This document shows, piece after piece, positions 25,726 through 45,350 of a DNA stretch of 45,350 nucleotides. Origin of the DNA: Lachnospiraceae bacterium (lineage in GTDB: Bacteria; Bacillota; Clostridia; Lachnospirales; Lachnospiraceae); assembly GCA_024405155.1 (NCBI GenBank), contig JAKSPC010000013.1, positions 1 through 45,350 of the forward strand, given 5' to 3'. The notes below the pieces were generated by a model. The model saw nothing but the letters and a program-made list of their open reading frames with translations, made no database searches and was not told the origin of the DNA. Made by a program: the position numbers and the translations under genes. The stretch's first letter is position 1. The number at the start of each line of letters is the position of its first letter.

Positions 25726-26090
25726 AAAAACCGGCATGTGAGCCGGAGAGCTGTTTGAGCCGCATCCGGCTCACATAAATACTCAGGAAGTTTTTGCCGA
25801 TTTGGACCTCTGGCGCCCTGACCCCCTTTGCGGCTCACATTGCTTTCGAAAATTCTGCTGAAATGGCCCGAAAATAGTTTACATAACTTTATATTTGTGA
25901 GCCTGTCGGCGCCAAACCACGCCAGCGGCTCACATCGCAGTTTTTTGACTTTTTCAGCGTGTGAGCCGAAACGGCCTTAATGCGCCTAGCGGCTCACATC
26001 GCGGTTCTTGCCTTTAAGAAAAAGAGCATCCACGTGCTTGGCGGCGGCGGGCGGCTGCTATGTGGGAACGCCGCCCTGCCCCCGCTGCGC
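25726..26090 (+). repeat. hairpin-array repeat element, copy A
   Basis: A ~365-bp element recurs in inverted orientation at 35950-36309, with about four of five bases identical by eye. It contains three hairpins whose outer arms are the same word: TGTGAGCCGG/CCGGCTCACA (25737-25775), TGTGAGCC/GGCTCACA (25896-25934) and TGTGAGCC/GGCTCACA (25960-25998), plus one unpaired arm GCGGCTCACA (25830-25839). Hairpins 2 and 3 have inner GGC/GCC stems with 8-nt loops. The most conserved linkers are GATTTGGACCTCTGGCGCCC and the stretch between hairpins 2 and 3. It ends with a GC-rich tail containing GCGGCTGCTATGTG. It is not a CRISPR and no transposase is seen. A structured RNA, a protein-binding array or a non-autonomous mobile element are the main options. 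Confidence 0.85.
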
Positions 26091-26123
26091 AGTAAGGTGA
26101 GAGTACCGCGATAGAATCTAAAA

Positions 26124-26142
26124 AGGCCCCCGATGAGGGCCT
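26124..26142 (-). terminator. intrinsic terminator, second of a pair
   Basis: AGGCCC (26124-26129) and GGGCCT (26137-26142) form a 6-bp GC-rich stem, with a T-rich tail (TTTTTAG) on the minus strand. It backs up the terminator at 26148-26179. Confidence 0.7.
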
Positions 26143-26147
26143 GATTC

Positions 26148-26179
26148 AAAAAAAAGGCCGCCGCTTAGCGCGACAGCCT
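26148..26179 (-). terminator. intrinsic terminator of the dha-nagA-MATE operon
   Basis: A 10-bp stem (26155-26164 with 26170-26179, two G-T wobbles), 5-nt loop and eight T residues on the minus strand. It begins 8 bp after the MATE stop codon. Confidence 0.88.
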
Positions 26180-26186
26180 TTAGCTA

Positions 26187-27539
26187 TCACTGTCCTTTCC
26201 ACTTCCCGGAGAAGTAGAAGCAAAGAGCTATCAGGATGGGGACGAAACCTGCAAAGGCATCGCCGTACCAGTAACCCACGCAGCCCATGGAGAACACATT
26301 TCCCAGAAGATACGCGATCCCTACCCGGGCGATCATGCCGTCAATGATGGCCACGCAAAGGTTCAGCTTATAGTTGCCGGAACCGTTGATGAGAGCAAAT
26401 GCCGACGAGCGCGTGGTTGCACCAAGAAAGTTTACGATGGCCGGAGCAACGATAATGGACGCACTGGCAAGCACCCGGGGATCGTTGGTAAAGAACCCGA
26501 AGATCCTATCCTGTCCGAATACGAGTGCAGCGCCGGTGACTACGGTAATGGCCAGCATCACAAGGAAATTGGTGCGCATGATCTTCGGCACTCTGTCATA
26601 TTTCTCTGCGCCGATGCACTGCCCCGTCATGGCACTTCCCGCCGTGGTAAAGGAATTGGACACCACGCCGTACATGGTGTTCAGCTTGGAATACAGCCCT
26701 CCCACCGCCGACATGGTGACGCCGAAGGCATTGATCCAGGCTGTGAGCACGATCTTGGAAATGTTGACGGCCGCAGACTGAATGGCCATGGGGATCCCCA
26801 GTGCCAGAAGGCCCCGCAAAGCTCTCCCGGAAATGCGGAAACTGGAGGGCTTAAAATCAAAGCCAAAGGCATCCCGGTGGAAATACAGATAAATGAGGGA
26901 TGTTACGAAACTCACGCCCTGACCGATGACCGTGGCCAGCGCCGCGCCGTAGGCTTTCATGCCAAGCCCCGCCACGAACAAGATGTCCAGAACGATATTC
27001 AAAACGGCGGCTACCGCCACGAACACGAAGGGACGTTTGGAATCTCCCATGCCCCGCAGGATGGCGCTTACGATGTTGTAACCATAAATGAAGACCAGAC
27101 CGCAGATACAGGTCACGGCATAATCATAGGTGAGGGAATAGCTCTCCGCCGGCGTATTGAGCCAGGAAAGGATCTGATCCCGAAGCAGATAGCAGATCAC
27201 GGAAAGCACGATGCTGGTCACGAACAGGAACGTAAACATGGTGCCGATGGTCTTTTTTACATCCTCTTTCCTTCCGGCACCCACATGCTGGGAAATGATC
27301 ACCTGCCCGGCGGAAGAAAAACCCATGGCCAGGAAAGTAAGCAGATGAAGCAGCTCACCGCCGATATTCACTGCGCTCATGCCGGCACCGCCGATGACCT
27401 GTCCCGCCACGATCATGTCTACTACGTTATATATGGCCTGCAGAAGGTTGGACGCAAACAGGGGAAACGCAAATTTCAGGAGTTTTCCCGTCACACTGCC
27501 TTCTGTCAGATCAGTTATCATGGATCTCTTTTCTGCCAT
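26187..27539 (-). CDS. MATE-family efflux transporter
   Basis: A 450-aa membrane protein with twelve predicted transmembrane segments in two homologous halves. MATE features include GSVTGKLLKFAFPLFASNLL, NVVDMIVAGQVIGGAGMSAV and a second-half GIPMAIQSAAVNISKIVL with MTGQCIGAEKYDRV. These antiport drugs, organic cations or metabolites with Na+ or H+. The start at 27539 overlaps the TGA of the phosphatase gene (TGATG); ATG at 27521 with AGAGA upstream is an alternative, so the first six residues are uncertain. It is the last gene of the operon. Substrate not predictable; context leaves open export of a metabolite. Confidence 0.9.
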   Translation of the reverse strand: MAEKRSMITDLTEGSVTGKLLKFAFPLFASNLLQAIYNVVDMIVAGQVIGGAGMSAVNIGGELLHLLTFLAMGFSSAGQVIISQHVGAGRKEDVKKTIGTMFTFLFVTSIVLSVICYLLRDQILSWLNTPAESYSLTYDYAVTCICGLVFIYGYNIVSAILRGMGDSKRPFVFVAVAAVLNIVLDILFVAGLGMKAYGAALATVIGQGVSFVTSLIYLYFHRDAFGFDFKPSSFRISGRALRGLLALGIPMAIQSAAVNISKIVLTAWINAFGVTMSAVGGLYSKLNTMYGVVSNSFTTAGSAMTGQCIGAEKYDRVPKIMRTNFLVMLAITVVTGAALVFGQDRIFGFFTNDPRVLASASIIVAPAIVNFLGATTRSSAFALINGSGNYKLNLCVAIIDGMIARVGIAYLLGNVFSMGCVGYWYGDAFAGFVPILIALCFYFSGKWKGQ

Positions 27540-28195
27540 CACTGAAACCGGTCTATGCTGTAATGATCCACACATCTGGACTTATCGTACCATATGTGAT
27601 CCTGCTCGATGAGCTTAGCCGTTCCGTCCTTTACCTCAATGATATTCATGGAACAGTTGAGCGGCAGGTTTCCCCGCCAGAAATCCATGCTGTCGTCATC
27701 GTAGAGAAAGTCGCACATGGCTCTGACGGCGCATCCGTGGGTGGAGACAAGATAGGTCTTGTCATCGTCTCTGTCTATCAGTTCCTTTAAGAAGTCCTGG
27801 GTACGGTCACAGGTCTCCCGCATGGTCTCCCCGTCCAGCATTTCTTCTTTCGTTATGCCGAAAGGATCCGTCATGTACCGGAGCATGAACTCCTTCATCT
27901 CAGCCATGAGACGGTTGTCCCACCCGCCCACATCCGCCTCTTTCAGACGATCGTCATAAAAGATGGGAGTGTTTTCGTTCCCGCTCTCTGAAAGGAGGAT
28001 CTTCGCCGTATCGGCCGCCCGCGACAGGGGACTGGAATAGCACGCGTCAAAATGAATGCCGGCTTCCTTCAGGGCGGCAGCCGTCTCCTTTGCCAGAGCG
28101 ATGCCGTTTTCATTCAGTTCTCCGTCGAACCAGCCCTGCAGGCGTCCTTCCTTATTGCCCACGGTCTCCCCGTGGCGAATGGTATAAATAGTCAT
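27539..28195 (-). CDS. histidine phosphatase family protein
   Basis: A 218-aa protein of the phosphoglycerate-mutase-like superfamily. The N-terminal IRHGETVGNKEGRLQGW carries the phospho-accepting His and an Arg; YSSPLSRAADTA supplies a second Arg, DDRLKEADVGGWDN the acid and STHGCAVRAM the second His. Such proteins are mostly phosphatases of small metabolites (sugar phosphates, phosphoserine, nucleotides) rather than glycolytic mutases. It begins 30 bp after the hydrolase stop and its own stop overlaps the MATE start, so it is inside the operon. A phosphatase of an amino-sugar or triose phosphate would suit its position; this is inference. Confidence 0.85.
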   Translation of the reverse strand: MTIYTIRHGETVGNKEGRLQGWFDGELNENGIALAKETAAALKEAGIHFDACYSSPLSRAADTAKILLSESGNENTPIFYDDRLKEADVGGWDNRLMAEMKEFMLRYMTDPFGITKEEMLDGETMRETCDRTQDFLKELIDRDDDKTYLVSTHGCAVRAMCDFLYDDDSMDFWRGNLPLNCSMNIIEVKDGTAKLIEQDHIWYDKSRCVDHYSIDRFQ

Positions 28196-28224
28196 TTTCT
28201 GCCGATGTTCCTCTCAAGTAATTA

Positions 28225-29070
28225 TCATATTTCCGGGTCCGCGCCGGATACTAGAGCGGCCATCACCGCCTCCAGATTCTTCATGGTCTGCGGGGCGGAA
28301 AAAGTCTCATCTCCCGTCTGTGTCAGACCGTGGACCGTATCGGGAAGTGCCGTCAATCCGACAGTTCCCGGATATTTCAGTGCCAGGTCAAAAGAGCCGT
28401 CAAATACTATCTTCGGGTCTCTTTCACCGTGGAAAATAAGGATCCTCTGCTTTCTTCCCTCCGGATCCCGGCGATTCTGTTCGGATATGCGTTCGAAGGT
28501 CGCCGGAATATCCAGTTCTCTCAATTCTCGGATCAGCGCATTTCCCAGGAAATACGTATCAGAAAGCCGGTAACATACGCCGCCGGATCCGTCTGGGATC
28601 GCGGCAAAGGTCTCCTTCCCCCAGTTTGTATCCGGTGTCAGGATATTGCGGCGATAATCCGTAACGGGAGCGATCAGCATACAGGTACGGATCTCCCCGA
28701 AATGAGCCGCAGCGAGCCGCAGAGCCCCGGGGCCGCCGAAACTGATCCCCAGAGGGATGATCTCCCCGACTCCCTTTTCCTGCAGCCAGGAAAAAGCACT
28801 TTCCATATCCGCAAGCTGCGTGGAAGGCGTGAAAGAGCTCAAAGGCTCCCGGGAATCGCCATGGCCGCGGAAATCGATCCTCAGGCAGGCAATTCCTTTT
28901 TCTTCCAGTCGCTCTGCGATCCTTGCGGAGGTGTCATACCATTCGTTTTTGTCCCCGCAGATCCCGTGAGCGATCAGAACGGCCCGGCGGTCCGATCCCC
29001 CGGTAAATATCGCCGGGATCACTGCCCCGTCACGACCGATGATCTCCAGATTCTTTTTTCTGATCAGCAT
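28225..29070 (-). CDS. alpha/beta hydrolase
   Basis: A 281-aa alpha/beta-hydrolase-fold enzyme. The oxyanion region VLIAHGICGDKNEW is followed by CLRIDFRGHGDS and the nucleophile elbow GISFGG with Ser110; a late DTVHGLTQ supplies the probable catalytic His and IFHGERDPKI the probable acid. Length fits cytoplasmic esterases/peptidases of the BAAT/DLH-like type. The start at 29070 is chosen for GGAG 9 nt upstream; an ATG at 29175 lies inside the preceding nucleotidase gene. There is no signal peptide. It could be an esterase or deacylase acting on imported compounds; the substrate is unknown. Confidence 0.82.
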   Translation of the reverse strand: MLIRKKNLEIIGRDGAVIPAIFTGGSDRRAVLIAHGICGDKNEWYDTSARIAERLEEKGIACLRIDFRGHGDSREPLSSFTPSTQLADMESAFSWLQEKGVGEIIPLGISFGGPGALRLAAAHFGEIRTCMLIAPVTDYRRNILTPDTNWGKETFAAIPDGSGGVCYRLSDTYFLGNALIRELRELDIPATFERISEQNRRDPEGRKQRILIFHGERDPKIVFDGSFDLALKYPGTVGLTALPDTVHGLTQTGDETFSAPQTMKNLEAVMAALVSGADPEI

Positions 29071-29125
29071 GAAATCCGCTCTCCGTTCGCTGTGCCGGAT
29101 GACTGTGATGTGCTTTTCCGCCGGA

Positions 29126-30847
29126 TCACGGAGACCGGATGATATGGATCCTTCCGGCTCCTTCCGGATCTTCATAATTGATCCCGTAATCCGGGAAGGC
29201 GCTGAGCGGGCCGGTAAGGGAGGTGATCTCCGGGAATCCCTCCGCGTTTTTGTCAAATGCCGCCGAATAGCGGGCCAGCGCCGTATAGTCCACAAGCTTT
29301 CCGCTCTGGAGTACCGTGGTGTCTTTTTTAAACATATTGAACCCGCTGTTGCAGATCTCCAGGATGTAGGCCTGGCCGCTGACCGTGTAGTACCTTTCCG
29401 GATCCAGAGGTTCATAGGCACCGGTATGTCTGTTATAAACCATCACGTCCCTCACCCGCCGCTCTCCGGTGGGAGGACCGGCCCAGTTCCCTTCTGCGTC
29501 GGTCTGTATGGTGGAGGGAATGGTGGCGTCGATGGTGTAGGTAAGACCTGACACCTGCAGCAGAGAGGAGGATTCCATTTCCTTTCCGTCACTGCCGATA
29601 ACGCCGATCTTTTTGGCACCCCACTCCAGAGCGTCCAATATGTTCTGTCCGGTGGTCTCGATCATGCAGAGCTCGTTGCCGTAGGGAAGCGCGTCCATAC
29701 AGCTCATGAAACTGACGTCACCGGCGGGAATGCCGTTCTTTACGGCGCCGCTGTTTAACAGGGCAAGATCCGCCTCTGTATTCCATATTTTCTGCGTGTC
29801 ATAGAAATAGGCATCCGCCACAAAGTCGCCCAGAGCGATCTCACCGAACCGGATCAGCCGTCTTGACGGATCCTCCGGGTCCAAAAGCGCAAAGTCAAAG
29901 GGAAGGAAGGCGAACTTTGTTTCCAGATCATTCTTTACTTTCCTGACCCAGTCCGTTTCCAGCTTTGCCACCTTTTCATCCCGCTTTTCATAACCGTTTA
30001 TCAGTTCCGTGGTAATCTTTCCGTCCGCGGCGATGGTCATTTTTCCGATGTTTGCGAAAGCGGTGCCGGTCTGAGTGAGAGGAATCTCTTTTCCGTCGGC
30101 ATCCGTTATCATCTCGCACGCCATTACCGTGTGGGAGTGGGCGTCGATATAGGCATCCAGTCCCCGCACCTTTCCGATGATGTCAATGCTGCGCCAGGGC
30201 TCGACTTCTGCGTCCACGCCGGTATGGCCGATGGCGATCACATAGTCCGCCCCATCTGCCCTTGCCCCGTTAATGGCGCTCTGCACGGCGCTGTACAGTT
30301 CCTCCGGATCAGAGGCTCCCAGCATCCTCACATCCTCGAAACCGGTAAGTTTGGTATCCGGCGTAAGGATCCCCACGAAGGCGATCTTTTTGCCGCCGGC
30401 CGGAAGGATCACATAGGGCTCCAGATAGGTACATTCATTGAACGTATCATACAGGTTACAGCACACGTAGGGATATCGTGCCCTGGAAATCAGCTCGAAT
30501 CCGCCCTGGAACCCGTAATCGAAAACATGATTTCCGGGAGCAGCCGCGTCATATCCTGCTTCGTTCATCACGTGAATGACGGTCTTTCCTTCGTCAAACA
30601 TGCCGTAGCTCGTGCCCTGGGCAGCGTCTCCGGCGTCCACCAGGAGCACGTTTTCACCCTTTTCCATAAGCTCTTTTTTGAGAGCCGCCGCCGAGGCAAA
30701 CGACATGCCTTCTCCGTCCAGATACGTGTGGGTATCATTGGTGTACAAAATGACCGCAGTGTTCTTTTTCGGCGCGCAGGCCCCAAGCAGCAGGGCGCAG
30801 AATACCGCAGCCAGTATGACAGTAATTCGAATCTTTTTGGTGCTCAA
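29126..30847 (-). CDS. lipoprotein 5'-nucleotidase / metallophosphatase
   Basis: A 573-aa surface lipoprotein. With a TTG start at 30847, GGAGGT lies 6-7 nt upstream and the protein opens with a lipoprotein signal (basic STKKIR, hydrophobic core, LLGAC with lipidated Cys24). An in-frame ATG at 30865 sits before that Shine-Dalgarno and lacks one of its own. The metallophosphatase domain shows ILYTNDTHTYLD, LLVDAGDAAQGT, AAAPGNHVFDYG, IAIGHTGVD and DAHSHTVMA; the C-terminal 5'-nucleotidase domain includes NSGAVKNGIPAGDVSF and LPYGNELCMIETTGQ. Outside the membrane it would hydrolyse nucleotides or other phosphate esters. It is a distant paralogue of the cytoplasmic enzyme at 24176-25645. Confidence 0.85.
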   Translation of the reverse strand: MSTKKIRITVILAAVFCALLLGACAPKKNTAVILYTNDTHTYLDGEGMSFASAAALKKELMEKGENVLLVDAGDAAQGTSYGMFDEGKTVIHVMNEAGYDAAAPGNHVFDYGFQGGFELISRARYPYVCCNLYDTFNECTYLEPYVILPAGGKKIAFVGILTPDTKLTGFEDVRMLGASDPEELYSAVQSAINGARADGADYVIAIGHTGVDAEVEPWRSIDIIGKVRGLDAYIDAHSHTVMACEMITDADGKEIPLTQTGTAFANIGKMTIAADGKITTELINGYEKRDEKVAKLETDWVRKVKNDLETKFAFLPFDFALLDPEDPSRRLIRFGEIALGDFVADAYFYDTQKIWNTEADLALLNSGAVKNGIPAGDVSFMSCMDALPYGNELCMIETTGQNILDALEWGAKKIGVIGSDGKEMESSSLLQVSGLTYTIDATIPSTIQTDAEGNWAGPPTGERRVRDVMVYNRHTGAYEPLDPERYYTVSGQAYILEICNSGFNMFKKDTTVLQSGKLVDYTALARYSAAFDKNAEGFPEITSLTGPLSAFPDYGINYEDPEGAGRIHIIRSP

Positions 30848-30865
30848 AAACTTACCTCCATTCAT

Positions 30866-32056
30866 TCAGGGTAAATACATTTCCTGTTCTTTTCCTTCAA
30901 AAATCACCTTTTTTACGGTAAACGCCCCGTCTGTAAAGATGATGTTCGCCATCCTGCCCGGCAGGATGGATCCCACCCTGTCATCGATCCCCAGAGCTCT
31001 GGCCGCATTGGTGGACGCGCACTTGAACGTGACCCGGATATCCGCGCCGGTGGCGCGCATGAAATTGGCGGCGCCGTCGGCCACGGTGATGCGGCTTCCG
31101 AAAAGCTTTCCTTCCCGGTTCACGTTGATGTCACCGCCGCTTCCCAGGTCGGTCTGCGGATACTCCTCCGGATCCAGATCCGCCCGTTTGTGATACGTGC
31201 AGTCAGACACCAGAATGATATGATCCTCTCCCGCGCACCGAAGCGCCAGCCGCTGAGAAGCCGGTGTGACGTGCACACCGTTTTTATCCGAAATGATCTC
31301 ATAATAAAGCCCGGGAATGCTGAGCGCCACCATGGACACCCCATCCTGCGGGTCGCCGGTCAGATCAAACGCATGCACGCTCTGAAAATTTCCGGTGGCG
31401 TCAAACAGGTGGGTAATGATCTTTGCGCCCTTTTCCACCGCGCGGTACATGCTTGCCGGATCCGCCATGGTATGGCCGATATCCGCCGTCACGTGATACC
31501 GGTGGATCACATCCTCCACTTTTTCTGCAAAAGGCATTTCCGGCGCATAGGTACAGTGAAGAACGTTTCCCTTCCCCGCTTCGAAAAGCCTTGTAAAAGC
31601 TTCTTCCGAATACTTCCAGGCATACTTCCTGCCGGCCCCCATCCGCGGATTGATGTACGGTCCTTCCAGATGGATGCCGATGATGGAACTGCCGCCCTCC
31701 TCTATGGCTTTATTGCACTGTTCAATAATGGAAAGATACCGGTCCATCCGGAGGGAATAGGACGGGGAAGGCGTGACGGACGTAACGCCGTGCATTAAGT
31801 GGGCATCCGCCACGGCCCGGGTATTGTCGATGATGTCAAAGCCTTTTCCGTGCTGATGGTACCCATGCACATGTTCGTCGATGAGCCCCGGTCCCACAAA
31901 AAGTCCCGCCGCGTCGATGATCTCCGCATCCTCCGGCACCGGAAACGCACTGTCAGCAGTACAGGCTCCGACGATCCTGTCATCTTTAATAACAAGCGTT
32001 CCCTCCGTGATCCTGTCCGGAAAGACCAGTTTTCCGTTAACGATTGCCTTTGTCAT
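30866..32056 (-). CDS. nagA: N-acetylglucosamine-6-phosphate deacetylase
   Basis: A 396-aa amidohydrolase that converts GlcNAc-6-P to GlcN-6-P and acetate. Metal and substrate motifs are GPGLIDEHVHGYHQHG (His62, His64), IGIHLEGPYINPRMGAG, TADIGHTMA, ITHLFDATGNF and VSDCTYHK. Length is standard. It overlaps nothing, lying 4 bp after the HPr gene with GGAG upstream. It completes the route from MurQ, 8 kb away on the same strand; nagB is not in the window. Its place inside a dihydroxyacetone-kinase operon is unusual. Confidence 0.92.
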   Translation of the reverse strand: MTKAIVNGKLVFPDRITEGTLVIKDDRIVGACTADSAFPVPEDAEIIDAAGLFVGPGLIDEHVHGYHQHGKGFDIIDNTRAVADAHLMHGVTSVTPSPSYSLRMDRYLSIIEQCNKAIEEGGSSIIGIHLEGPYINPRMGAGRKYAWKYSEEAFTRLFEAGKGNVLHCTYAPEMPFAEKVEDVIHRYHVTADIGHTMADPASMYRAVEKGAKIITHLFDATGNFQSVHAFDLTGDPQDGVSMVALSIPGLYYEIISDKNGVHVTPASQRLALRCAGEDHIILVSDCTYHKRADLDPEEYPQTDLGSGGDINVNREGKLFGSRITVADGAANFMRATGADIRVTFKCASTNAARALGIDDRVGSILPGRMANIIFTDGAFTVKKVIFEGKEQEMYLP

Positions 32057-32060
32057 TATT

Positions 32061-32321
32061 CTATGCTCCGGATCCTTCTAAAAATGACTGCAATGCCGCG
32101 GCTGCGGCTGCTTCATCCTCTCCCTCCACGGAGAAAACAACCGTATCCCCCGCTTTTGTCCCCAGGCGCATTACCGCTATCAGACGCATGGCCTCCACCG
32201 TCTGTCCCTTTGCAGTGATTGTGATCTTTGACTTATATTTCCTTACCTCTTTTGCCAGGAGCCCCGCCGGCCTTACATGAAGCCCCATGGGGTCTTTCAG
32301 CGTATACGTAAACGAGATCAT
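32061..32321 (-). CDS. HPr-like phosphocarrier lacking the Ser46 regulatory site
   Basis: An 86-aa HPr-family protein. His15 in DPMGLHVRPAG is the phospho-accepting residue. At the position of the regulatory Ser46 there is Arg (VEAMRLIAVMRLG), so it cannot be phosphorylated by HPr kinase there and would not serve as a CcpA cofactor in the usual way. It is 10 bp after dhaM. In PTS-linked DHA kinases the phosphate passes EI, HPr, DhaM, DhaL; E. coli has the HPr domain fused to DhaM, and here it is a separate gene. It is probably a dedicated carrier for DhaM. Confidence 0.85.
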   Translation of the reverse strand: MISFTYTLKDPMGLHVRPAGLLAKEVRKYKSKITITAKGQTVEAMRLIAVMRLGTKAGDTVVFSVEGEDEAAAAAALQSFLEGSGA

Positions 32322-32331
32322 TTTCTATCCT

Positions 32332-32694
32332 TTACAGATGTTCCAGTTCTTCCATTATCTCATCCAGCGCGGCACCGGAAGCGGAAAGGACGGTCCCGGT
32401 CACGGCAGCTTCCACGATCGGACCTTCCGCCATTCTGACGTTTGAAAGATCCAGGCTTTCCAGTACCATTTCCGTTGTCATGACGGCGCTGCCAAGGTCT
32501 GTAAGAACGATTACTCCGTCGCTGCCGGACGCCTGTTCTATGGCCCGGGAGATCTTCTCAAAGCTTGTTCCGTAACTTCCGTCTTCCAGACCGCCCGCAG
32601 GAAACATGGGGACTTCCGGCGCAGACATTTTTGCCAGATCGATCACGCCGTCCGCCAGTTTTGCACTGTGAGAAACTACAACAAATGCGACCAT
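32332..32694 (-). CDS. dhaM: PTS-dependent dihydroxyacetone kinase, phosphotransferase subunit DhaM
   Basis: A 120-aa EIIA-mannose-like domain. His9 in FVVVSHSAKLADG is the phosphorylated residue; the acidic-loop VIVLTDLGSAVMTTEM is typical of DhaM. It accepts phosphate from HPr and recharges ADP bound on DhaL. It is the short Gram-positive form with no HPr or EI domains. Its ATG shares one base with the dhaL stop region (genes abut at 32694), and the HPr gene follows. Confidence 0.92.
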   Translation of the reverse strand: MVAFVVVSHSAKLADGVIDLAKMSAPEVPMFPAGGLEDGSYGTSFEKISRAIEQASGSDGVIVLTDLGSAVMTTEMVLESLDLSNVRMAEGPIVEAAVTGTVLSASGAALDEIMEELEHL

Positions 32695-33320
32695 TATACG
32701 ACCGCCTTTTTTACTTCTTCCAGCATCATGGTATAGGACGTGGCCCCCGGATCCTGATGCCCGATGGAGCGTTCGCCGATGTAACTGGCACGGCCTTTCG
32801 TTGCGGCGATCGTTTTTGTATATTCCACGCCCTCCCGGGCAGCATTCACACCTGCCTCCAATACGGCTTTTGTATCTTTCCCTTCGGCAAACGCGGCCTT
32901 CATTGCTTCCAGAGAAGGTACCATCGCGTCCAGCATGGTCTTTTCCCCCGTGGTGGACTTCCCGCGCATTTTTACACCTTCCACGGCGCCCTCCAGAGCT
33001 TTCAGAAAATCTTCCAGAGATAATTCCGTCCGGTCCTTCAACGCTTTTGCCATGTTCATAAATGCCGTCCCGTAAAGCGGACCCGCAGCACCGCCCACCG
33101 TAGACACAAGCGTCATTCCGACCAGTTTGAAAAGGTCTGCCGGAACAGCGATATCTGCGCCGGAAAGTTTTTCCTTTACCGCTTCAAAGCCACGGCTCAT
33201 GTTGATGCCATGGTCACCGTCCGCGATCGCGTTGTCCAGTTCCGTCAGGAACAGCTTTTCTTCACTGATCCGGTCCGCGATCTTCCCTACGATCTCAAGG
33301 ATCGTTTCGTTCTTCATCAT
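32694..33320 (-). CDS. dhaL: dihydroxyacetone kinase subunit DhaL
   Basis: A 208-aa ADP-binding subunit. The Mg-ADP site ELDNAIADGDHGINMSRGF contains Asp34, Asp36 and His37; VGGAAGPLYGTAFMNMA and SYIGERSIGHQDPGATS are also family-specific. It moves phosphate from DhaM to dihydroxyacetone held on DhaK. GGAGG precedes ATGATG; the first ATG overlaps the dhaK stop as ATGA, so the genes are translationally coupled. Confidence 0.94.
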   Translation of the reverse strand: MMKNETILEIVGKIADRISEEKLFLTELDNAIADGDHGINMSRGFEAVKEKLSGADIAVPADLFKLVGMTLVSTVGGAAGPLYGTAFMNMAKALKDRTELSLEDFLKALEGAVEGVKMRGKSTTGEKTMLDAMVPSLEAMKAAFAEGKDTKAVLEAGVNAAREGVEYTKTIAATKGRASYIGERSIGHQDPGATSYTMMLEEVKKAVV

Positions 33321-34321
33321 GATCTTCCTCCGAATTCTTTGAAAGCAATGGTGTCTGCGGCCGCGTTCAAAAGAGCCTTGCGCTCATCGTTCAGCCTTAA
33401 AAGGGTCACAGACAGGCCCTGCATCTCCAGAGACGTCATGTACTCTCCCACGTAGGAGCGATAAACTTTTACATTATTTTCGGCAAGTACATCCGCCAGA
33501 TGATCATACGCAATATAAAGCTCCATCAGCGGCGTTCCGCCGGAAGAATTGAGCATGACAGCGACTTCACTGCCGGCAAAATCCAGATCCGCCAGAATGT
33601 GATCCAGCAGTTCATCAATGATCTCATTGACCGGTTTCATTTTCTGCCGGTTCACACCGGGTTCTCCGTGAATGCCGATCCCCATCTCCAGTTCGTCTTC
33701 TCCAATGGAAAAGCCCGGAGTTCCTGCCGCAGGGACCGTACAGGGAGTAAGAGCCACACCCATGGTGCGGACGTTTGCGATCGTTTCCTTCGCTACACGC
33801 TCTACTTCCTCCAGAGATGCTCCTGTTTCCGCCATGGCGCCGGCGATCTTATGAACGAATATCGTTCCGGCCACACCGCGGCGCCCGGTGGTCCAGGTGG
33901 AATTCTGCACTGCCACGTCATCATCCACGACCACCCCGGCAACTTTAATGTCATCCATTTCTGCCATTTCCTGAGCCATCTCGAAGTTCATGATATCACC
34001 CGTATAGTTCTTGATGATCATCAGGACTCCTTCCGGCGTTGCGATCGCCTTGATACCCTCGTAGATCTGGTCCGGCGTGGGTGAGGTAAAAACGGCGCCC
34101 GGTACGGCACAGTCCAGCATTCCCGTTCCGACATACCCTGCGTGTGCGGGTTCGTGCCCGCTTCCGCCTCCGGAGATCAGAGCAACTTTATTCCTCTTCT
34201 TTTCAGAACGCACGATCACGTTCCCGCAGTCAAGTTTTTTCACATACCCGGGAAACGCCTTTACAAGCCCCTGTATCATTTCGTTTTCACAGTTTTCAGG
34301 TAAATTGATGAATTTTTTCAT
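33317..34321 (-). CDS. dhaK: dihydroxyacetone kinase subunit DhaK
   Basis: A 334-aa substrate-binding subunit. ISGGGSGHEPAHAGYVG and KNYTGDIMNFEMA line the site, and His218 in GIGIHGEPG is the residue that binds dihydroxyacetone covalently in E. coli DhaK, at the same number. First gene of the long operon that runs to the MATE gene; CGGAG lies 8 nt before the ATG. The upstream 336 bp contain no strong consensus promoter, and no DhaS/DhaR/DhaQ regulator is in the window. Confidence 0.95.
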   Translation of the reverse strand: MKKFINLPENCENEMIQGLVKAFPGYVKKLDCGNVIVRSEKKRNKVALISGGGSGHEPAHAGYVGTGMLDCAVPGAVFTSPTPDQIYEGIKAIATPEGVLMIIKNYTGDIMNFEMAQEMAEMDDIKVAGVVVDDDVAVQNSTWTTGRRGVAGTIFVHKIAGAMAETGASLEEVERVAKETIANVRTMGVALTPCTVPAAGTPGFSIGEDELEMGIGIHGEPGVNRQKMKPVNEIIDELLDHILADLDFAGSEVAVMLNSSGGTPLMELYIAYDHLADVLAENNVKVYRSYVGEYMTSLEMQGLSVTLLRLNDERKALLNAAADTIAFKEFGGRS

Positions 34322-34657
34322 GGTTTTTCTCCGTTGTTTTCTGATTATGAAAATAGCCTTCTTCTGAACGGCATTTATTCACTTTCGAATGTTTCTGATC
34401 AAATGAATGGTACTGATGAGGCATCCGAAGGCTGCTGCGATACCCAGCCATACCCGCATCAGATTTTGTTCTTCATCGTTTTTTGCCATGACTATAGCTA
34501 TTCTATCTTTCCGAAAAGCTTTTTTCTTTCGGTTTTTCGTATGCGAAAGAAACGGACCGAAAAAAAGAAACGGTCCGAACGCTTAATTCATTATAACAGA
34601 TATCTCATGAAAAGGAATGGATTTTTTATTTTTTTATTATCAAAAAGCGACGTATGC
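34322..34657. other. intergenic region upstream of dhaK
   Basis: No gene is seen. It holds the nahK terminator (34553-34577), a CCGAAA/TTTCGG hairpin at about 34511-34532 followed on the plus strand by T residues, and a small TTTCG/CGAAA palindrome. The dhaK promoter should lie here or read through from nahK; the best -10-like boxes (CATAAT, AATAAA) are weak. Confidence 0.55.
34553..34577 (-). terminator. intrinsic terminator after nahK
   Basis: CGGACCG (34553-34559) and CGGTCCG (34571-34577) form a 7-bp GC-rich stem with an 11-nt loop, followed on the minus strand by TTTCTTT. It lies 80 bp after the nahK stop. Confidence 0.65.
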
Positions 34658-35752
34658 TCAGAACGCCGCTTTTGCAATGATCTCCCGTATTTTATCTGCA
34701 TTTTCTTCCATTTCCTGCACCAGCTTCATCTGGGTATGGGTACGGACAAGATTATGCTTCGGGTAAGTGGTTTTGTAATAAACATCACCCTCCAGATAGT
34801 CCGCCAGAAAACGAAGTGCCTGTTCATAAGTGATCCCCAGCGCCCCCATCGGCAGGGTCTCGATTTCCTTTTCTGTGAGCTTGTCGCCGCAGCCCTTGAT
34901 AAATCCCTTCGCAAACTCTTCGTACAAATGAAGATCGCATTTCACTTTGCTCACATCCGGCTCGTCCTCCATCGCCGTGGAAGCCCCTGTCCGGATCGCA
35001 TCTCCGAAATCTGTCATGGCAAATCCCGGCATTACCGTATCGAGATCGACCACGCATACCGGTTTTCGTTCCTTTGTATCGAACAGCAGGTTGTTGATCT
35101 TTGTATCATTGTGGGTGACTCTTAACGGGATCTCCCCCTTCTCGTAACTCTCCATGGAGAAGTATGCCAGATCCTTTCTGCTGAGAATGAATTCGATCTC
35201 CTCCCTGCATTCCCCCACTCTTCCGGCCTTGTCTTCTTCCACTACTTTCAGGAAATTTATGAAGCGGGCACGGGTATTGTGGAAACCGGGGATCGTCTCA
35301 TAAAGAGTGTCTGCAGGATAATCTGAAAGAAGACTCTGAAAATGACCGAAAGCGGTCCCCGTGAGATAAAAATCTTCCGGCGTTTCTGATACCTCATAGC
35401 TGACCGTATTCTCTACAAAAGCAGTCACCCGCCAGTACTCTCCGTCTTCATCTATCACGTAATCAAGCCCATCCCTCGCCGGAATGATGGTAAGAGTCTC
35501 CCGCCCGGGGTCACCGCCTTCCAGCGCGATCTTTTTCTTCAGAAAGTCCGTAATGCCTCTCATGTTGGCCATGAGCTCGTCAGGGTGTTTGAAAACGTAC
35601 CTGTTGATCCTCTGAAGAACATACTTCTTTTCGGAACCATCCGCATCAAAAACCAGCAATACGGTATCATTGATATGACCGTTTCCGAACGGGGCCGCTT
35701 TTTTCAGTTCCCCGGGAATATCAAATTTTTTCGTAATCTTCTCGTAATTCAT
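34658..35752 (-). CDS. nahK: N-acetylhexosamine 1-kinase-like phosphotransferase
   Basis: A 364-aa aminoglycoside-phosphotransferase-fold kinase that closely resembles bifidobacterial NahK, which phosphorylates GlcNAc/GalNAc at C1. Shared segments are FGNGHINDTVLLV, KKYVLQRINRYVF, PLRVTHNDTKINNLLFD (catalytic loop), VVDLDTVMPG (Mg-binding Asp), FGDAIRTGASTA and FLADYLEGDVYY. The start at 35752 matches the family length; a longer open frame to 36037 runs into the upstream repeat and is not supported. No clear Shine-Dalgarno is visible. A fragment of a membrane protein ends 11 bp upstream. NahK works in salvage of host-glycan or milk-type sugars; here it may link free amino sugars to UDP-sugar synthesis. 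Confidence 0.88.
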   Translation of the reverse strand: MNYEKITKKFDIPGELKKAAPFGNGHINDTVLLVFDADGSEKKYVLQRINRYVFKHPDELMANMRGITDFLKKKIALEGGDPGRETLTIIPARDGLDYVIDEDGEYWRVTAFVENTVSYEVSETPEDFYLTGTAFGHFQSLLSDYPADTLYETIPGFHNTRARFINFLKVVEEDKAGRVGECREEIEFILSRKDLAYFSMESYEKGEIPLRVTHNDTKINNLLFDTKERKPVCVVDLDTVMPGFAMTDFGDAIRTGASTAMEDEPDVSKVKCDLHLYEEFAKGFIKGCGDKLTEKEIETLPMGALGITYEQALRFLADYLEGDVYYKTTYPKHNLVRTHTQMKLVQEMEENADKIREIIAKAAF

Positions 35753-35763
35753 CTCAGACTTAA

Positions 35764-35934
35764 TCACTTTCCGCTTGCCACATGCTTCGGATACCATTTC
35801 TGAAACCATGCGGTAAATATGCCCATGAGCGCAGGAAGGACCGAATTGATCGCGCCGACATAACTGCCGGCACCCGTCTGCATAATAGAATATGTCCAGA
35901 TAGGTGTCAATAGGTAAAGGATCCCCCATGCCGC
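35764..35934 (-). pseudogene. truncated C-terminal fragment of a membrane transporter
   Basis: About 56 codons (GILYLLTPIWTYSIMQTGAG..., ending KWYPKHVASGK) read like the last two transmembrane helices of a permease, possibly EamA/DMT type. Upstream of 35934 the frame continues only into the tail of hairpin-array copy B, with no start, signal or family match. The likely reading is a gene whose 5' part was lost when the element or a rearrangement arrived. The identity of the parent family is uncertain. Confidence 0.5.
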
Positions 35935-35949
35935 CGGCTGCAAGTCCGG

Positions 35950-36309
35950 TGCAGCGGGTCGCGGCGCCCTCACATAGCAGCCGCCTGCCGTCGTAAGTGC
36001 GTGAGATGACCTTTTTCTCAAAAGCAAAAGCGGTCATGTGAGCCGTTGGGCACTTTAAAGCCGCTTTGGCTCACACGCTGAAAAAGTCAAAAAACTGCGA
36101 TGTGAGCCGCAGGCGTGTTTTGACGCCACCAGGCTCACATACATAAAGTTATGTAAACCGTTTTAGGACGATATCAGTAGAATTTTCGGAAGCGATGTGA
36201 GCCGCAAGAGGGGTCAGGGCGCCAGAGGTCCAAATCAGCAAAAAATTTCTGAACATTTATGTGAGCCGGATGAGGCATAAACCGCTCACCGGCTCACATG
36301 CCGGTTTTT
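35950..36309 (-). repeat. hairpin-array repeat element, copy B (inverted)
   Basis: Read on the minus strand this matches copy A at 25726-26090 nearly end to end. Hairpins lie at 36298-36260 (10-bp arms), 36139-36101 and 36075-36037 (8-bp arms), with the unpaired arm at 36205-36196. Arms are identical to copy A, while loops and linkers differ; inner GGC/GCC stems are kept. In its tail the frame beginning TAFAFEKK corresponds to LAFKKK in copy A. It lies between the TetR-fusion gene and the truncated permease. Confidence 0.85.
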
Positions 36310-40539: not shown

Positions 40540-40641
40540 TATACCCTTTCGGGTATAATTGCAACAGAATTATACGGTATTCGTACCGTTCGGGTATAAT
40601 TTTGTGGTTTTGTTTCGCGATTATACCCGTACGGGTATAAT
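40540..40641. promoter_or_regulatory. cluster of three palindromic operators of the hip operon
   Basis: Site 1: TATACCC-N4-GGGTATA (40540-40557). Site 2: a wider dyad ATTATAC...GTATAAT at about 40570-40600, with an internal ACGGTA/TACCGT. Site 3: a perfect 22-bp palindrome (40620-40641) with half-site ATTATACCCGT. The half-site TATACCC contains TATAAT-like -10 boxes on both strands, so binding would mask promoters. E. coli HipB operators have a different but similarly spaced TATCC/GGATA design. Confidence 0.75.
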
Positions 40642-42906: not shown

Positions 42907-45350
42907 TTACGGAGCAGCTTCTTCTGCCACGGCTTCCGCAGGCTCGATCAGTTCTTCGGGCTTTGCTTCCTCAAACTTCTCCGGCTCGAACTCCGGTTCG
43001 AACACTTCTGCGGTCGGTTCACTTACTTCCGTTTCAGCCATCGGAGCATCGTTGACCGGATCGGAAGAAGTTCCGGAAGCCTTATAGAGTGGCGAACCCG
43101 AAACAGGGAGCCTTTCATAAGCGTTATTGCCTGAATTGTATTTCCAGCCGTCGCCGAGTGCATTTTTTATCTTCTCATTTTCATCACTGATGATTTTGAC
43201 CGATGTAAGCTTTGAACAGTCTTTGAACATATCCTCTACTGTAGTTTCATTTCTAACAGTAAAACCATCAAGGCCAATTGTTTCAAGACTTCCACATCCA
43301 TTAAACATATTCTTCATTGTTGTAACCTCTGAAGTATCAAAACTACTTAGGTCAAGAGTCGTCAGGGTTTCACAATTTTGGAACATATTGGTCATTTTTG
43401 TAACATTTGAAGTATTAAAACTACTTAGGCCAAGTGATTGAAGTTTAGTACAACCGTTGAACATATCTCCCATATCAGTAACCTTTGATGTATCAAAACT
43501 GTTGCCAAATGTTATTGTTTCAAGGGCTGAACAATCTTTGAACATACCGCTCATATTTCCAACTTCACTTGTATTAAAACTGCTAATGTTAAGTGCTGTA
43601 AGCTTCTTACAATTTAAGAACATACTTGACATATTAGTAACTTTTGAAGTTTCAAAGTTGCTCAAATCAAGTGAAGAGAGCTCATCACAGTTATTAAACA
43701 TACTTTGCATATTAGTAACAATTGAAGTATCAAACCCGCTTACGTCAAGTGATGAAAGAGCATGGCAGAAAGCAAACATACCTGTCATATCAGTAACTTT
43801 TGAAGTATCAAAGTTACTTAGATTAAGTGATGAAAGCGCCTTGCAGCTATAAAACATACCTGTCATATTAGTAACTTTTGAAGTATTCAGGTTTCCTGTG
43901 CCACTGATGTTTCCTGCATTTTGCATTCCCTGGAACATGTATGCTGTGGATGTAAGACCATCATATCCTGCAACGGAACTGTCGATGACAACGCTTTTGA
44001 TGTTACTACGATTACCGTAACCCCAATCAGATTGTTTCGTTGCCGCAGTAGGAAGGTTGTTGTAAACAGTGATATTATCTCCGCTGTGGTCTTTATTGTC
44101 ATAGTAGAATGTCAGGGTATTTGCATCATTAGTGGTGTCGTATACTGCCTTGAAGGTTGGCGCTGCCGGTGCGGTGTAGGTGCCGTCGAAGATTGAAGAG
44201 TCCATTACTCCTAACGCCGACAAATCAATACCCGCAAACGTCAGTGACGTGAATTTGCCGTCGGTCATTGTGCAGGTAGCCGTAAATTGGGCGGTTGATA
44301 ATACATATGTGTCACCGACCTTGGTGAAGGTATCGGTGTCATCTAAGCCGAAAACTTGAATTATCGTTTGATCTTCTGTCACGGTCGTATGCAATATAGC
44401 GAAGCCGCCATTGTCTCCCGGTACCCAGAATGCCTTTTTTCCGTCGTCCGTTACCCAGGCATTTTCCGGAATGCTTGCAGTAGCCGGATTAGACCAGTCA
44501 AAGTTAGCCACGGTCGGGATGCCTGTGTTCGTCCCGACGATTTTGCTGATTATCGTCGTCCACTGTGCGTACAGCGTCATATCCGCTGTTACTGTGTAAT
44601 TGTCGAAATCCCACGGGTCAGACAACATACCGGTGGTGGCGTCCTTGGTCTTGTACCAGTCGGCGAAGGTGTGAATCGTGTCCGTCGGATCGGCAGGCTT
44701 GGTGACCTTCCCACCGTCTTTAATCGTCTGCGCCGTCGGTTCTGTGCCGCTAATACCGTTCAGGTCGAAAGTTACCGTATATTCTGTTGGTGACGGTGCT
44801 GTTACAGTCACCGTGCATGTATTTGTCTTGCCGCCGTCAACAGTGGTCACAGTAATAGTTGCGTTTCCTGCTGCAACAGCATGAACATTTCCTTCATCAT
44901 CTACAGTTGCAACATTTGTATTGTTGCTTGTCCATGTTACAGCCTTATTTGTAGCATTATCAGGAAGAACGGTTGCGATAAGCTCTACGTCAGAATCACC
45001 AACAGTAATTGACAATTCTGCCTTGTCCAAAAAAACACTTGTTACGGATACTAACGGCGCTGCCGGTGCGTAGGTGCCGTCACTGCCGCTTGAACCTGTT
45101 ACGGTGATGCTCTCTGCCGCTCCATCCTTTACGTTGAACGTTACTGCGGCATCTCCGGACTTGCATACGTAGTTATCTCCCGACTTGGTTACGGTAGTAT
45201 CTTTGCCAAGTGTGAGATTGCCAACCTTAATATTATCCCCGTCTTTATATGCCTTCTTGCCGCCTGCATTTACCCATGCTGAATCAGCCGAAGACGGGAA
45301 ACCGGAAGGCAGGATCTCTGAGAGCTTCTTTGTTTCCGGTGCGGTATAGG
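42907..45350 (-). CDS. BspA-like surface protein with DUF285 repeats (5' end beyond window)
   Basis: Partial: the frame is open to the right edge (>=813 codons) and the true start is outside; a TTG at 45030 is internal. In order from the edge: a module ending SGSDGTYAPAAP; a Big_2-like domain (VTSVFLDKAELSITVGDSD to GNATITVT); an InlB-B/Flg_new repeat (YTVTFDLNGISG to MTLYAQW); a second APAAP-ending module; then about eight ~23-26-residue BspA/DUF285 repeats (FDTSKVTDMTGMFAFC..LSSL). The end is a Pro/Glu-rich acidic tail (EPEFEPEKFEEAKPEE) with no LPXTG or wall-binding repeat. Such proteins are exported adhesin-like surface molecules. How it is anchored cannot be told from the part in view. 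Confidence 0.88.
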   Translation of the reverse strand, partial: YTAPETKKLSEILPSGFPSSADSAWVNAGGKKAYKDGDNIKVGNLTLGKDTTVTKSGDNYVCKSGDAAVTFNVKDGAAESITVTGSSGSDGTYAPAAPLVSVTSVFLDKAELSITVGDSDVELIATVLPDNATNKAVTWTSNNTNVATVDDEGNVHAVAAGNATITVTTVDGGKTNTCTVTVTAPSPTEYTVTFDLNGISGTEPTAQTIKDGGKVTKPADPTDTIHTFADWYKTKDATTGMLSDPWDFDNYTVTADMTLYAQWTTIISKIVGTNTGIPTVANFDWSNPATASIPENAWVTDDGKKAFWVPGDNGGFAILHTTVTEDQTIIQVFGLDDTDTFTKVGDTYVLSTAQFTATCTMTDGKFTSLTFAGIDLSALGVMDSSIFDGTYTAPAAPTFKAVYDTTNDANTLTFYYDNKDHSGDNITVYNNLPTAATKQSDWGYGNRSNIKSVVIDSSVAGYDGLTSTAYMFQGMQNAGNISGTGNLNTSKVTNMTGMFYSCKALSSLNLSNFDTSKVTDMTGMFAFCHALSSLDVSGFDTSIVTNMQSMFNNCDELSSLDLSNFETSKVTNMSSMFLNCKKLTALNISSFNTSEVGNMSGMFKDCSALETITFGNSFDTSKVTDMGDMFNGCTKLQSLGLSSFNTSNVTKMTNMFQNCETLTTLDLSSFDTSEVTTMKNMFNGCGSLETIGLDGFTVRNETTVEDMFKDCSKLTSVKIISDENEKIKNALGDGWKYNSGNNAYERLPVSGSPLYKASGTSSDPVNDAPMAETEVSEPTAEVFEPEFEPEKFEEAKPEELIEPAEAVAEEAAP

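What the first reader, a model, noticed from the sequence alone, without database searches (positions are those of the whole stretch)
25726..36309. Two inverted copies of a ~360-bp hairpin-array element bound a 10-kb metabolic block
Seen: copies at 25726-26090 (+) and 35950-36309 (-) share nearly full-length identity, and each has three hairpins whose outer arms are the same word (TGTGAGCC/GGCTCACA) plus one lone arm in the same place. Between them lies a self-contained nahK/dha/nagA/MATE block. Known: inverted repeats can drive inversion or mark non-autonomous elements. Inference: an uncharacterised repeat family, either mobile or RNA-encoding, that may have carried or can invert the block. 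No transposase or integrase is present.
Basis: partly seen in the sequence, partly recalled or inferred. Interest (0 to 1): 0.75.

Follow-up and report, generated by a model that had tools for sequence, protein, structure and literature searches.

The report
Dispersed arrays of phased DNA dyads
The two matching repeats belong to a large family of non-coding DNA elements scattered through this bacterium, mostly between genes; their fixed 8-letter arms and helix-matched spacing look like docking sites for DNA-binding proteins, and nothing seen here shows that they carry or flip the genes between them.

Summary
In detail: the copies at 25726-26090 (+) and 35961-36309 (-) are real and 85-86% alike. 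They are not a special pair. The same 2.03-Mb draft genome holds at least 38 loci with the element body and 88 perfect TGTGAGCC-N23-GGCTCACA dyads, reversed control 0. A second, unrelated arm word (W2, TACATATAAT-N17-ATTATATGTA) makes arrays of mostly 3-5 dyads at 63-64 nt (20 arrays, 71 units in 832 kb). Dyad spacings fall near multiples of 10.5 nt. W1 arms are 93-100% conserved, interiors 71-83%, and interiors pair no better than chimeras. This favours double-stranded protein-binding arrays over RNA or ssDNA hairpins; the protein is unknown. W1 shows no target-site duplication except inside a separate MITE. No W1 copy lies inside a called ORF (0 of 33), but 1 of 20 W2 arrays does (ORFs of 200 aa or more). 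Flanking of the 10-kb block looks incidental. A new variant of bacterial interspersed palindromic repeats.

The parts
25726..25736 (+). copy 1, left end (AAAAACCGGCA; 94% conserved over 33 copies)
25737..25775 (+). copy 1, dyad A (TGTGAGCC-N23-GGCTCACA)
25896..25934 (+). copy 1, dyad C
25960..25998 (+). copy 1, dyad D; followed by the right end TCGCGGTTCTTG, roughly the inverse of the left end
26042..26090 (+). copy 1, G+C-rich 'tail' module, also found some hundred bases away from the body in other copies
36299..36309 (-). copy 2, left end
36260..36298 (-). copy 2, dyad A
36196..36234 (-). copy 2, dyad B with degenerate left arm
36101..36139 (-). copy 2, dyad C
36037..36075 (-). copy 2, dyad D
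35961..35993 (-). copy 2, tail module

Best explanation
Shown: the finding is two of at least 38 dispersed copies of an element (W1) built of four dyads with nearly invariant 8-bp inverted arms. The same genome carries a second large family (W2), and hints of further ones, with unrelated arm words but nearly the same geometry: 37-39-nt dyads at 62-64 nt and other near-integral numbers of helical turns. Inferred: each dyad is a double-stranded binding site for a dimer (or pair of dimers) of a sequence-specific DNA-binding protein. The arrays put several such complexes on one face of the helix so that they act together, as architectural or topological sites or as titration or regulatory arrays. 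Different words serve different (perhaps paralogous) proteins. Arrays spread by local duplication and by riding on other mobile elements, one shown carrier being a GTTACTGTTCAGAG-ended MITE. The two window copies do not act together on the block between them.
For: 88 perfect W1 dyads, control 0; 33 perfect W2 dyads, control 0. W1 arms conserved 0.927-1.000 against interiors 0.708-0.834 over 33 distinct copies (dyad A arms were part of how copies were picked, the arms of B right, C and D were not). W2 linkers (26-27 nt) and 17-nt interiors vary in sequence but hardly in length. In 20 W2 arrays the 51 consecutive start-to-start spacings all lie within 1.5 nt of a multiple of 10.5: 45 are 63 or 64, the others 52, 74, 74, 75, 85 and 126; 9 of the 20 arrays are in stretches fetched afterwards as a hold-out. 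Collapsing the spacing classes of all words to six clusters (43.5, 51.8, 63.2, 73.6, 85.5, 95.0), 24 of 20,000 random sets are as well phased. W2 interiors pair less than chimeras of different units (2.12 against 2.68 of 8 positions; 2000 of 2000 shuffles at or above the observed value), and W1 dyads A, C and D fold no better than chimeras (59, 93 and 95 of 100 shuffles as stable or more). Same-word dyad pairs: 110 in 832 kb of the own genome against 2 low-complexity ones in 380 kb of six congeners. Gene orientation around W1 is mixed.
Against: No binding protein was identified and nothing was measured. W2 units were found by their arms (at most 1 mismatch per arm), so W2 arm conservation is no independent evidence. 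One W1 copy has an A-C distance of 161 nt, 3.5 nt off phase. W1 A/T tracts are not phased (mean cosine -0.048); those of W2 are (0.537), but this partly restates the dyad spacing. The further words (W3, W5, W6, W8) rest on one array each and were defined after seeing them; the 95-nt class uses dyad B, which lacks a left arm; classes are not all independent. Linker 1 and the left end of W1 are also well conserved (0.935, 0.939), so arms are not the only constrained part. High arm conservation could also come from recent spread of a few active lineages. Constant-length spacers of differing sequence are also reported for REP dimers (PMC3733652, passage). Half-site separation differs between the words (28 in W2, 31 in W1).
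Confidence: 0.47

Rival explanations
1. REP/REPIN/BIME-type selfish palindromes: the dyads fold as single-strand hairpins and were copied by a RAYT or another HUH (Y1) transposase, which would insert without target-site duplication (recalled).
For: Palindromic, 37-41 nt, arrayed with linkers of near-constant length, several families in one genome, no TSD. The genome encodes an IS200-type Y1 transposase (C3:238-600) and a RAYT-like 251-aa Y1 protein (C14:3007-3762).
Against: I see no GTAG/CGTC-like tag shared at either end in the flanks listed (by eye). The RAYT-like gene is flanked by other inverted repeats (GGGACGGTTCTTC), not W1 or W2. Interiors show no pairing beyond the arms. Helical phasing is not expected of ssDNA hairpins.
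Confidence: 0.24
2. Ordinary MITE: a non-autonomous DDE-transposon derivative with terminal inverted repeats (AAAAACCGGCATGTGAGCC...), mobilised by an IS transposase.
For: W1 is about 285 bp, symmetric, with ends that match each other in inverse orientation at 76-86% (self-matches). A W1 subfamily sits inside MITEs ending in GTTACTGTTCAGAG, one with an exact 8-bp TSD (CCTATTGC) and two with 7 of 8 matching.
Against: Over 29 copies outside that subfamily no pair of offsets gives clearly more flank matches than 12 shuffles of partners, for lengths 4-9. The right boundary is ragged. Neutral copies should lose arms as fast as linkers. W2 arrays vary in unit number.
Confidence: 0.13
3. Structured non-coding RNA or mRNA-end element: hairpins act in transcripts as terminators, stabilisers or ncRNA.
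For: Arms of W1 can form strong RNA hairpins.
Against: No Rfam match at gathering scores; no consistent pairing inside the units; mixed orientation (12 tandem-opposite, 7 tandem-same, 6 divergent, 5 convergent, 3 undetermined of 33); W2 arms are A+T apart from one G/C pair; truncated copies occur.
Confidence: 0.06
4. One reading: the inverted pair is a recombination cassette that carried in, or inverts, the 10-kb block.
For: Inverted 86% repeats of 305 bp are there. Two inverted MITE copies on C11 show flanks (CTTTATAG/CTATAAAG) that an inversion would leave.
Against: At least 38 copies of either orientation make such pairs expected. The genes named inside and next to the block are on one strand, with no recombinase among the 11 window ORFs scanned. 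The C11 case may be an assembly join through a near-identical repeat.
Confidence: 0.05

Closest known systems
Repetitive extragenic palindromes, BIMEs and REPINs
   Same: [quoted passage not shown] PMC2817692, start of the abstract in the listing).
   Different: No GTAG/CGTC tag seen, not next to the RAYT-like gene, no pairing inside the arms, symmetric units, helical phasing, and unrelated arm words sharing one geometry.
Miniature inverted-repeat transposable elements (MITEs)
   Same: About 100-400 bp, inverted ends, no coding content, dispersed (size range from PMC3116915, passage).
   Different: No TSD for W1 outside a carrier MITE; internal arms more conserved than the rest.
Multi-dyad protein-binding sites such as resolvase res sites (recalled, from no call)
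   Same: Several dyads of about 25-35 bp with inverted arms, spaced by whole helical turns.
   Different: Here many dispersed, mostly evenly spaced, equivalent dyads; no recombinase known to be linked to them.

Membership tests
REP (broad definition: short, extragenic, palindromic, repeated; PMC12306157, passage) | Palindromes of 14-40 nt in many copies, seldom in coding sequence | tested here: met
   88 W1 and 33 W2 perfect dyads. Inside called ORFs of 200 aa or more: 0 of 33 W1, 1 of 20 W2 arrays; overlapping an ORF of that size by more than 5 nt: 2 of 33 and 4 of 20. Crude ORF calls.
REP with RAYT (GTAG/CGTC super-families, PMC3733652) | GTAG or CGTC tetranucleotide at one end | tested here: not met
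   Flanks and array ends listed show no such shared tag, judged by eye
REP with RAYT (GTAG/CGTC super-families, PMC3733652) | Same palindrome flanks a RAYT gene | tested here: not met
   The RAYT-like gene at C14:3007-3762 has GGGACGGTTCTTC inverted repeats at its sides; the nearest W1 copy is 1.9 kb away. The same paper notes RAYT-like genes without REPs, so this is not strict.
REP / REPIN | Stem-loop maintained by pairing | tested here: inconclusive
   Arms are complementary, also across unrelated words; interiors pair no better than chimeras. Arm symmetry fits a hairpin and a protein dyad alike.
MITE | Terminal inverted repeats, 100-400 bp, no long ORF of its own | tested here: met
   Ends match each other in inverse orientation; about 285 bp
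MITE | Target-site duplication | tested here: not met
   W1: none over 29 copies. Of 8 carrier-MITE places looked at: 1 exact 8-bp TSD, 2 with 7 of 8, 2 explained only by an inversion between them, 2 without, 1 with no left end found
MITE | Related autonomous transposon | tested here: inconclusive
   None noticed in the stretches fetched; no dedicated search, and only part of the genome was read
Structured RNA family | Covariation of paired positions or a match in Rfam | tested here: not met
   (gathering scores only)
Multi-site dsDNA protein-binding array | Conserved dyad half-sites with helically phased spacing | tested here: met
   one W1 copy off phase
Multi-site dsDNA protein-binding array | A protein that binds the dyads | not testable with these tools
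   No candidate identified; needs pull-down or EMSA

The most novel reading that the evidence does not exclude
The genome uses a family of paralogous architectural DNA-binding proteins, each with its own dyad word, that load on helically phased arrays spread through the chromosome: a modular, multi-specificity chromosome-organising or segregation system, with array elements that propagate as DNA parasites of that system.
Probability: 0.15. Interest if true: 0.8.

Novelty: new variant of a known kind. Interest (0 to 1): 0.5.

Why it matters
Palindrome arrays in bacterial intergenic DNA are often read as products of ssDNA transposition or as RNA hairpins. Here unrelated arm words share one geometry set by the pitch of the double helix, and the interiors are free of pairing, so the unit under constraint appears to be a dsDNA site. 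If a binding protein is found, these arrays become a ready-made genome-wide map of an unknown nucleoid or regulatory protein, and spacing phase becomes a simple test to separate protein-site arrays from REP-type hairpins elsewhere.

Tried and rejected
Tried without result: Rfam on the window (no match at gathering scores). W1 core in GTDB-220 contigs (one hit in a Campylobacterales MAG contig, taken as chance; records of or near the own genome may be left out). W1 in plasmids and phages (none). A W1 dyad pattern in IMG/VR (two isolated dyads, taken as chance) and the W1 core there (none). W2 in IMG/VR (12 stretches, none with a second unit). W3 in IMG/VR (none). Palindromes with 11-nt arms of the RAYT-side repeat in the own genome (0). 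DnaA was located (contig C10) in the hope of ordering contigs relative to the origin; not useful. Two literature searches with combined terms gave 0 and 1 papers; no paper describing these arrays was met in the listings, which is not proof that none exists.

Rejected: a larger segmental duplication with coding content (flanks of most copies differ; a few, such as those on C15 and L013/L042, do share flanks); an RNA leader or terminator; a full MITE reading for W1. In congeners and other relatives W1 DNA had no full match in 60 other genomes (3 weak short hits, which when read show no dyads); W2 exact dyads were in 0 of 24 congeners. These congeners are distant: DhaK was found in 3 of 24, at 56-61% identity, so absence says little about age. 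A first de novo search for paired dyads in congeners was spoilt by a stretch that reads N and was cut; repeated without it: 2 low-complexity pairs in 19 stretches, 380,000 bases, from six congeners.

Full report
Observation. The inverted pair is real: 25726-26030 pairs with 36005-36309 (305 nt, 86%), and 26042-26074 with 35961-35993 (33 nt, 85%). Reading both copies confirms three TGTGAGCC-N23-GGCTCACA dyads and a lone GGCTCACA in each. The window is one whole contig (C5) of a 46-contig, 2,027,948-base genome.

Copy number and spread. A blast of copy 1 against that genome gives at least 38 loci that contain the body of the element, some truncated, plus two with only its right part or tail (my count from its 71 rows, many of which are self-matches between the arms; 40 of 68 first-look candidates were scored, so 38 is a lower bound). 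The dyad pattern occurs 88 times, the reversed control 0 times. W1 was not met in 60 other genomes of genus to order rank apart from 3 weak short hits, which when read show no dyads. It was not met in plasmid or phage records nor, as a 19-mer, in IMG/VR. One exact 20-mer in the GTDB-220 contigs is an isolated match in a Campylobacterales MAG, taken as chance. Near relatives are missing from the held data: DhaK is at 56-61% identity in the 3 of 24 congeners that have it, so the absence cannot date the family.

Anatomy of W1. Aligning 33 distinct copies gives: left end AAAAACCGGCA; dyad A at 0-38; a 25-nt linker; dyad B at 64-102, whose left arm reads TTTGGACC in 99.6% of cells; a 56-nt linker; dyad C at 159-197; a 25-nt linker; dyad D at 223-261; right end about TCGCGGTTTTT (0.686 conserved). 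Half-site starts at 0, 31, 64, 95, 159, 190, 223 and 254 make the element symmetric about its centre. Arms are 0.927-1.000 conserved, interiors 0.708-0.834, linkers 0.797-0.935, the left end 0.939. Copies were picked by the sequence before dyad B and by the arms of dyad A (at least 11 of 16 letters), so arm A is favoured by the method while C and D are not. A G+C-rich tail (positions about 308-365) is a separate module, next to the body or some hundred bases away.

A second word with the same design. A scan for inverted arms in 439 kb of the genome showed another family, W2: TACATATAAT-N17-ATTATATGTA, 37 nt. It has 33 perfect dyads genome-wide, 0 in the control and 0 in 24 congeners. In 832 kb (the first sample including the window, plus 392,913 bases fetched later as a hold-out) I find 20 arrays and 71 units, 11 arrays in the first part and 9 in the hold-out. 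Linkers are 26-27 nt in nearly all cases whatever their sequence. Further words appear in one array each: TGTCACGAAA (62 nt apart), TGGCATCGAAA (74 nt), TTCCATCC (74 nt). Same-word dyad pairs number 67 and 43 in the two own samples and 2, both low-complexity, in 380,000 bases of six congeners.

Helical phasing. All 51 consecutive W2 spacings in the 20 arrays are within 1.5 nt of a multiple of 10.5: 45 are 63 or 64, the rest 52, 74, 74, 75, 85 and 126, the last spanning a degenerate unit. Over all words the spacing classes are 43.5, 51.5-52, 62-64, 72-74.5, 85.5 and 95. With classes collapsed to six clusters, 24 of 20,000 random sets are as well phased at 10.5; uncollapsed, 0 of 20,000. The period was taken from B-DNA, not fitted; the best fitted periods were 10.6-10.95. 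Against it: one W1 copy has an A-C distance of 161, 3.5 nt off (the others are 158 or 159); several classes rest on one array; the 95-nt class uses the incomplete dyad B. A/T tracts are phased in W2 arrays (mean cosine 0.537, flanks 0.080, 0 of 200 shuffles), which partly restates the dyad spacing, but not in W1 (-0.048), while the W1 flanks show a weak signal (0.102, 0 of 200 shuffles). A shared curvature mechanism is therefore not supported.

Hairpin or double strand? If the units worked as ssDNA or RNA hairpins, the interiors might be expected to extend the stem. In 66 distinct W2 units the interior has 2.12 symmetric pairs of 8, fewer than chimeras of different units (2.68; 2000 of 2000 shuffles at or above the observed value). 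Folding energies are no better than chimeras: W2 -4.94 against -5.28 (58 of 60 shuffles as stable or more), W1 dyads A, C and D 59, 93 and 95 of 100 (see also the pair table). The design is therefore 'fixed arms, free interior, fixed distance', which fits protein binding to duplex DNA. This is inference; no protein is known, and a hairpin that needs only its arms is not excluded.

Mobility. For 29 W1 copies outside the carrier MITE no pair of flank offsets shows a target-site duplication beyond 12 shuffles of partners. A subfamily of W1 lies inside 369-453-bp elements with GTTACTGTTCAGAG ends. Of 8 such places looked at, one has the exact 8-bp TSD CCTATTGC, two match at 7 of 8 (CTTTTTTT/CTTTTTTG, TGGGGGAG/TGGGGAAG), two have none on their own, two on C11 have none singly but share CTTTATAG/CTATAAAG in their right flanks, as an inversion of the 3.9 kb between them would leave, and for one no left end was found; one of the eight, 508 bp long, holds other hairpin words. 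An assembly join through the repeat is not excluded on C11. A RAYT-like gene and an IS200 transposase exist, but the RAYT-like gene has its own, different inverted repeats.

Context. A crude longest-ORF annotation puts no W1 copy (0 of 33) wholly inside an ORF; 2 of 33 overlap the end of an ORF of at least 200 aa by more than 5 nt, and 14 of 33 if ORFs down to 80 aa are counted. For the 20 W2 arrays the figures are 1 inside and 4 overlapping at 200 aa, 4 and 9 at 80 aa, those inside included. So the arrays are mainly, not strictly, extragenic by this measure. Gene orientation around W1 is mixed. The block between the window copies encodes MATE, a cobC/PGM-like phosphatase, an alpha/beta hydrolase, a 5'-nucleotidase-domain protein, a NagA-like deacetylase, DhaL, DhaK and an APH-type kinase, on the minus strand like the genes on either side. 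With a copy every 53 kb or so on average, and clusters such as six on C15, flanking needs no special explanation.

Comparison. In the passages I read, REPs are described as short extragenic palindromes (PMC12306157), mostly with a GTAG or CGTC end and linked to RAYT transposases (PMC3733652), often as inverted doublets (PMC3116915); REP spacers may keep length while changing sequence (PMC3733652). The broad description is met here; the tag and the RAYT neighbourhood are not. MITEs need TSDs; W1 lacks them. The resemblance to multi-dyad protein sites such as resolvase res sites is recalled, not tested.

Noticed in passing
G000 contig C11, 66-518 and 4444-4896 (L048, L080, L081): Two inverted GTTACTGTTCAGAG-ended MITEs whose right flanks are reverse complements (CTTTATAG/CTATAAAG), as if the 3.9 kb between them had inverted, or the assembly was joined through the repeat.
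   Followed up: partly
G000 contig C1, 180196-180703 (L078): A 508-bp MITE with the same ends but other internal hairpin words, next to a TnpB/OrfB-like reading frame (that name recalled, no family search).
   Followed up: partly
G000 contig C14, 3007-3762 (L052): RAYT-like 251-aa Y1 transposase flanked by GGGACGGTTCTTC inverted repeats.
   Followed up: partly
G000 contig C15, 15893-17660 (L044): Two W1 copies in direct orientation with similar right flanks enclose an ORF of unknown function (no family search).
   Followed up: no
G000 contig C18, about 28890-29360 (L045): A W1 copy whose middle dyads are replaced by dyads with another word (TGGCATCGAAA...TTTCGATGCCA), again 39 nt: a hybrid array.
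   Followed up: partly
window 40591-40629: A lone 39-nt dyad CGGGTATAAT...ATTATACCCG of the same size class; no search for its word was made.
   Followed up: no
window 43304-43886: Direct repeats spaced 78 nt (one gap of 159) inside the ORF 42907-45030 (-).
   Followed up: no
G000 contigs C12, C23, C34: No W1 match among those listed for these large contigs (206, 113 and 108 kb); may reflect chromosomal position, the unscored candidates, or assembly bias, as repeats tend to end contigs.
   Followed up: no
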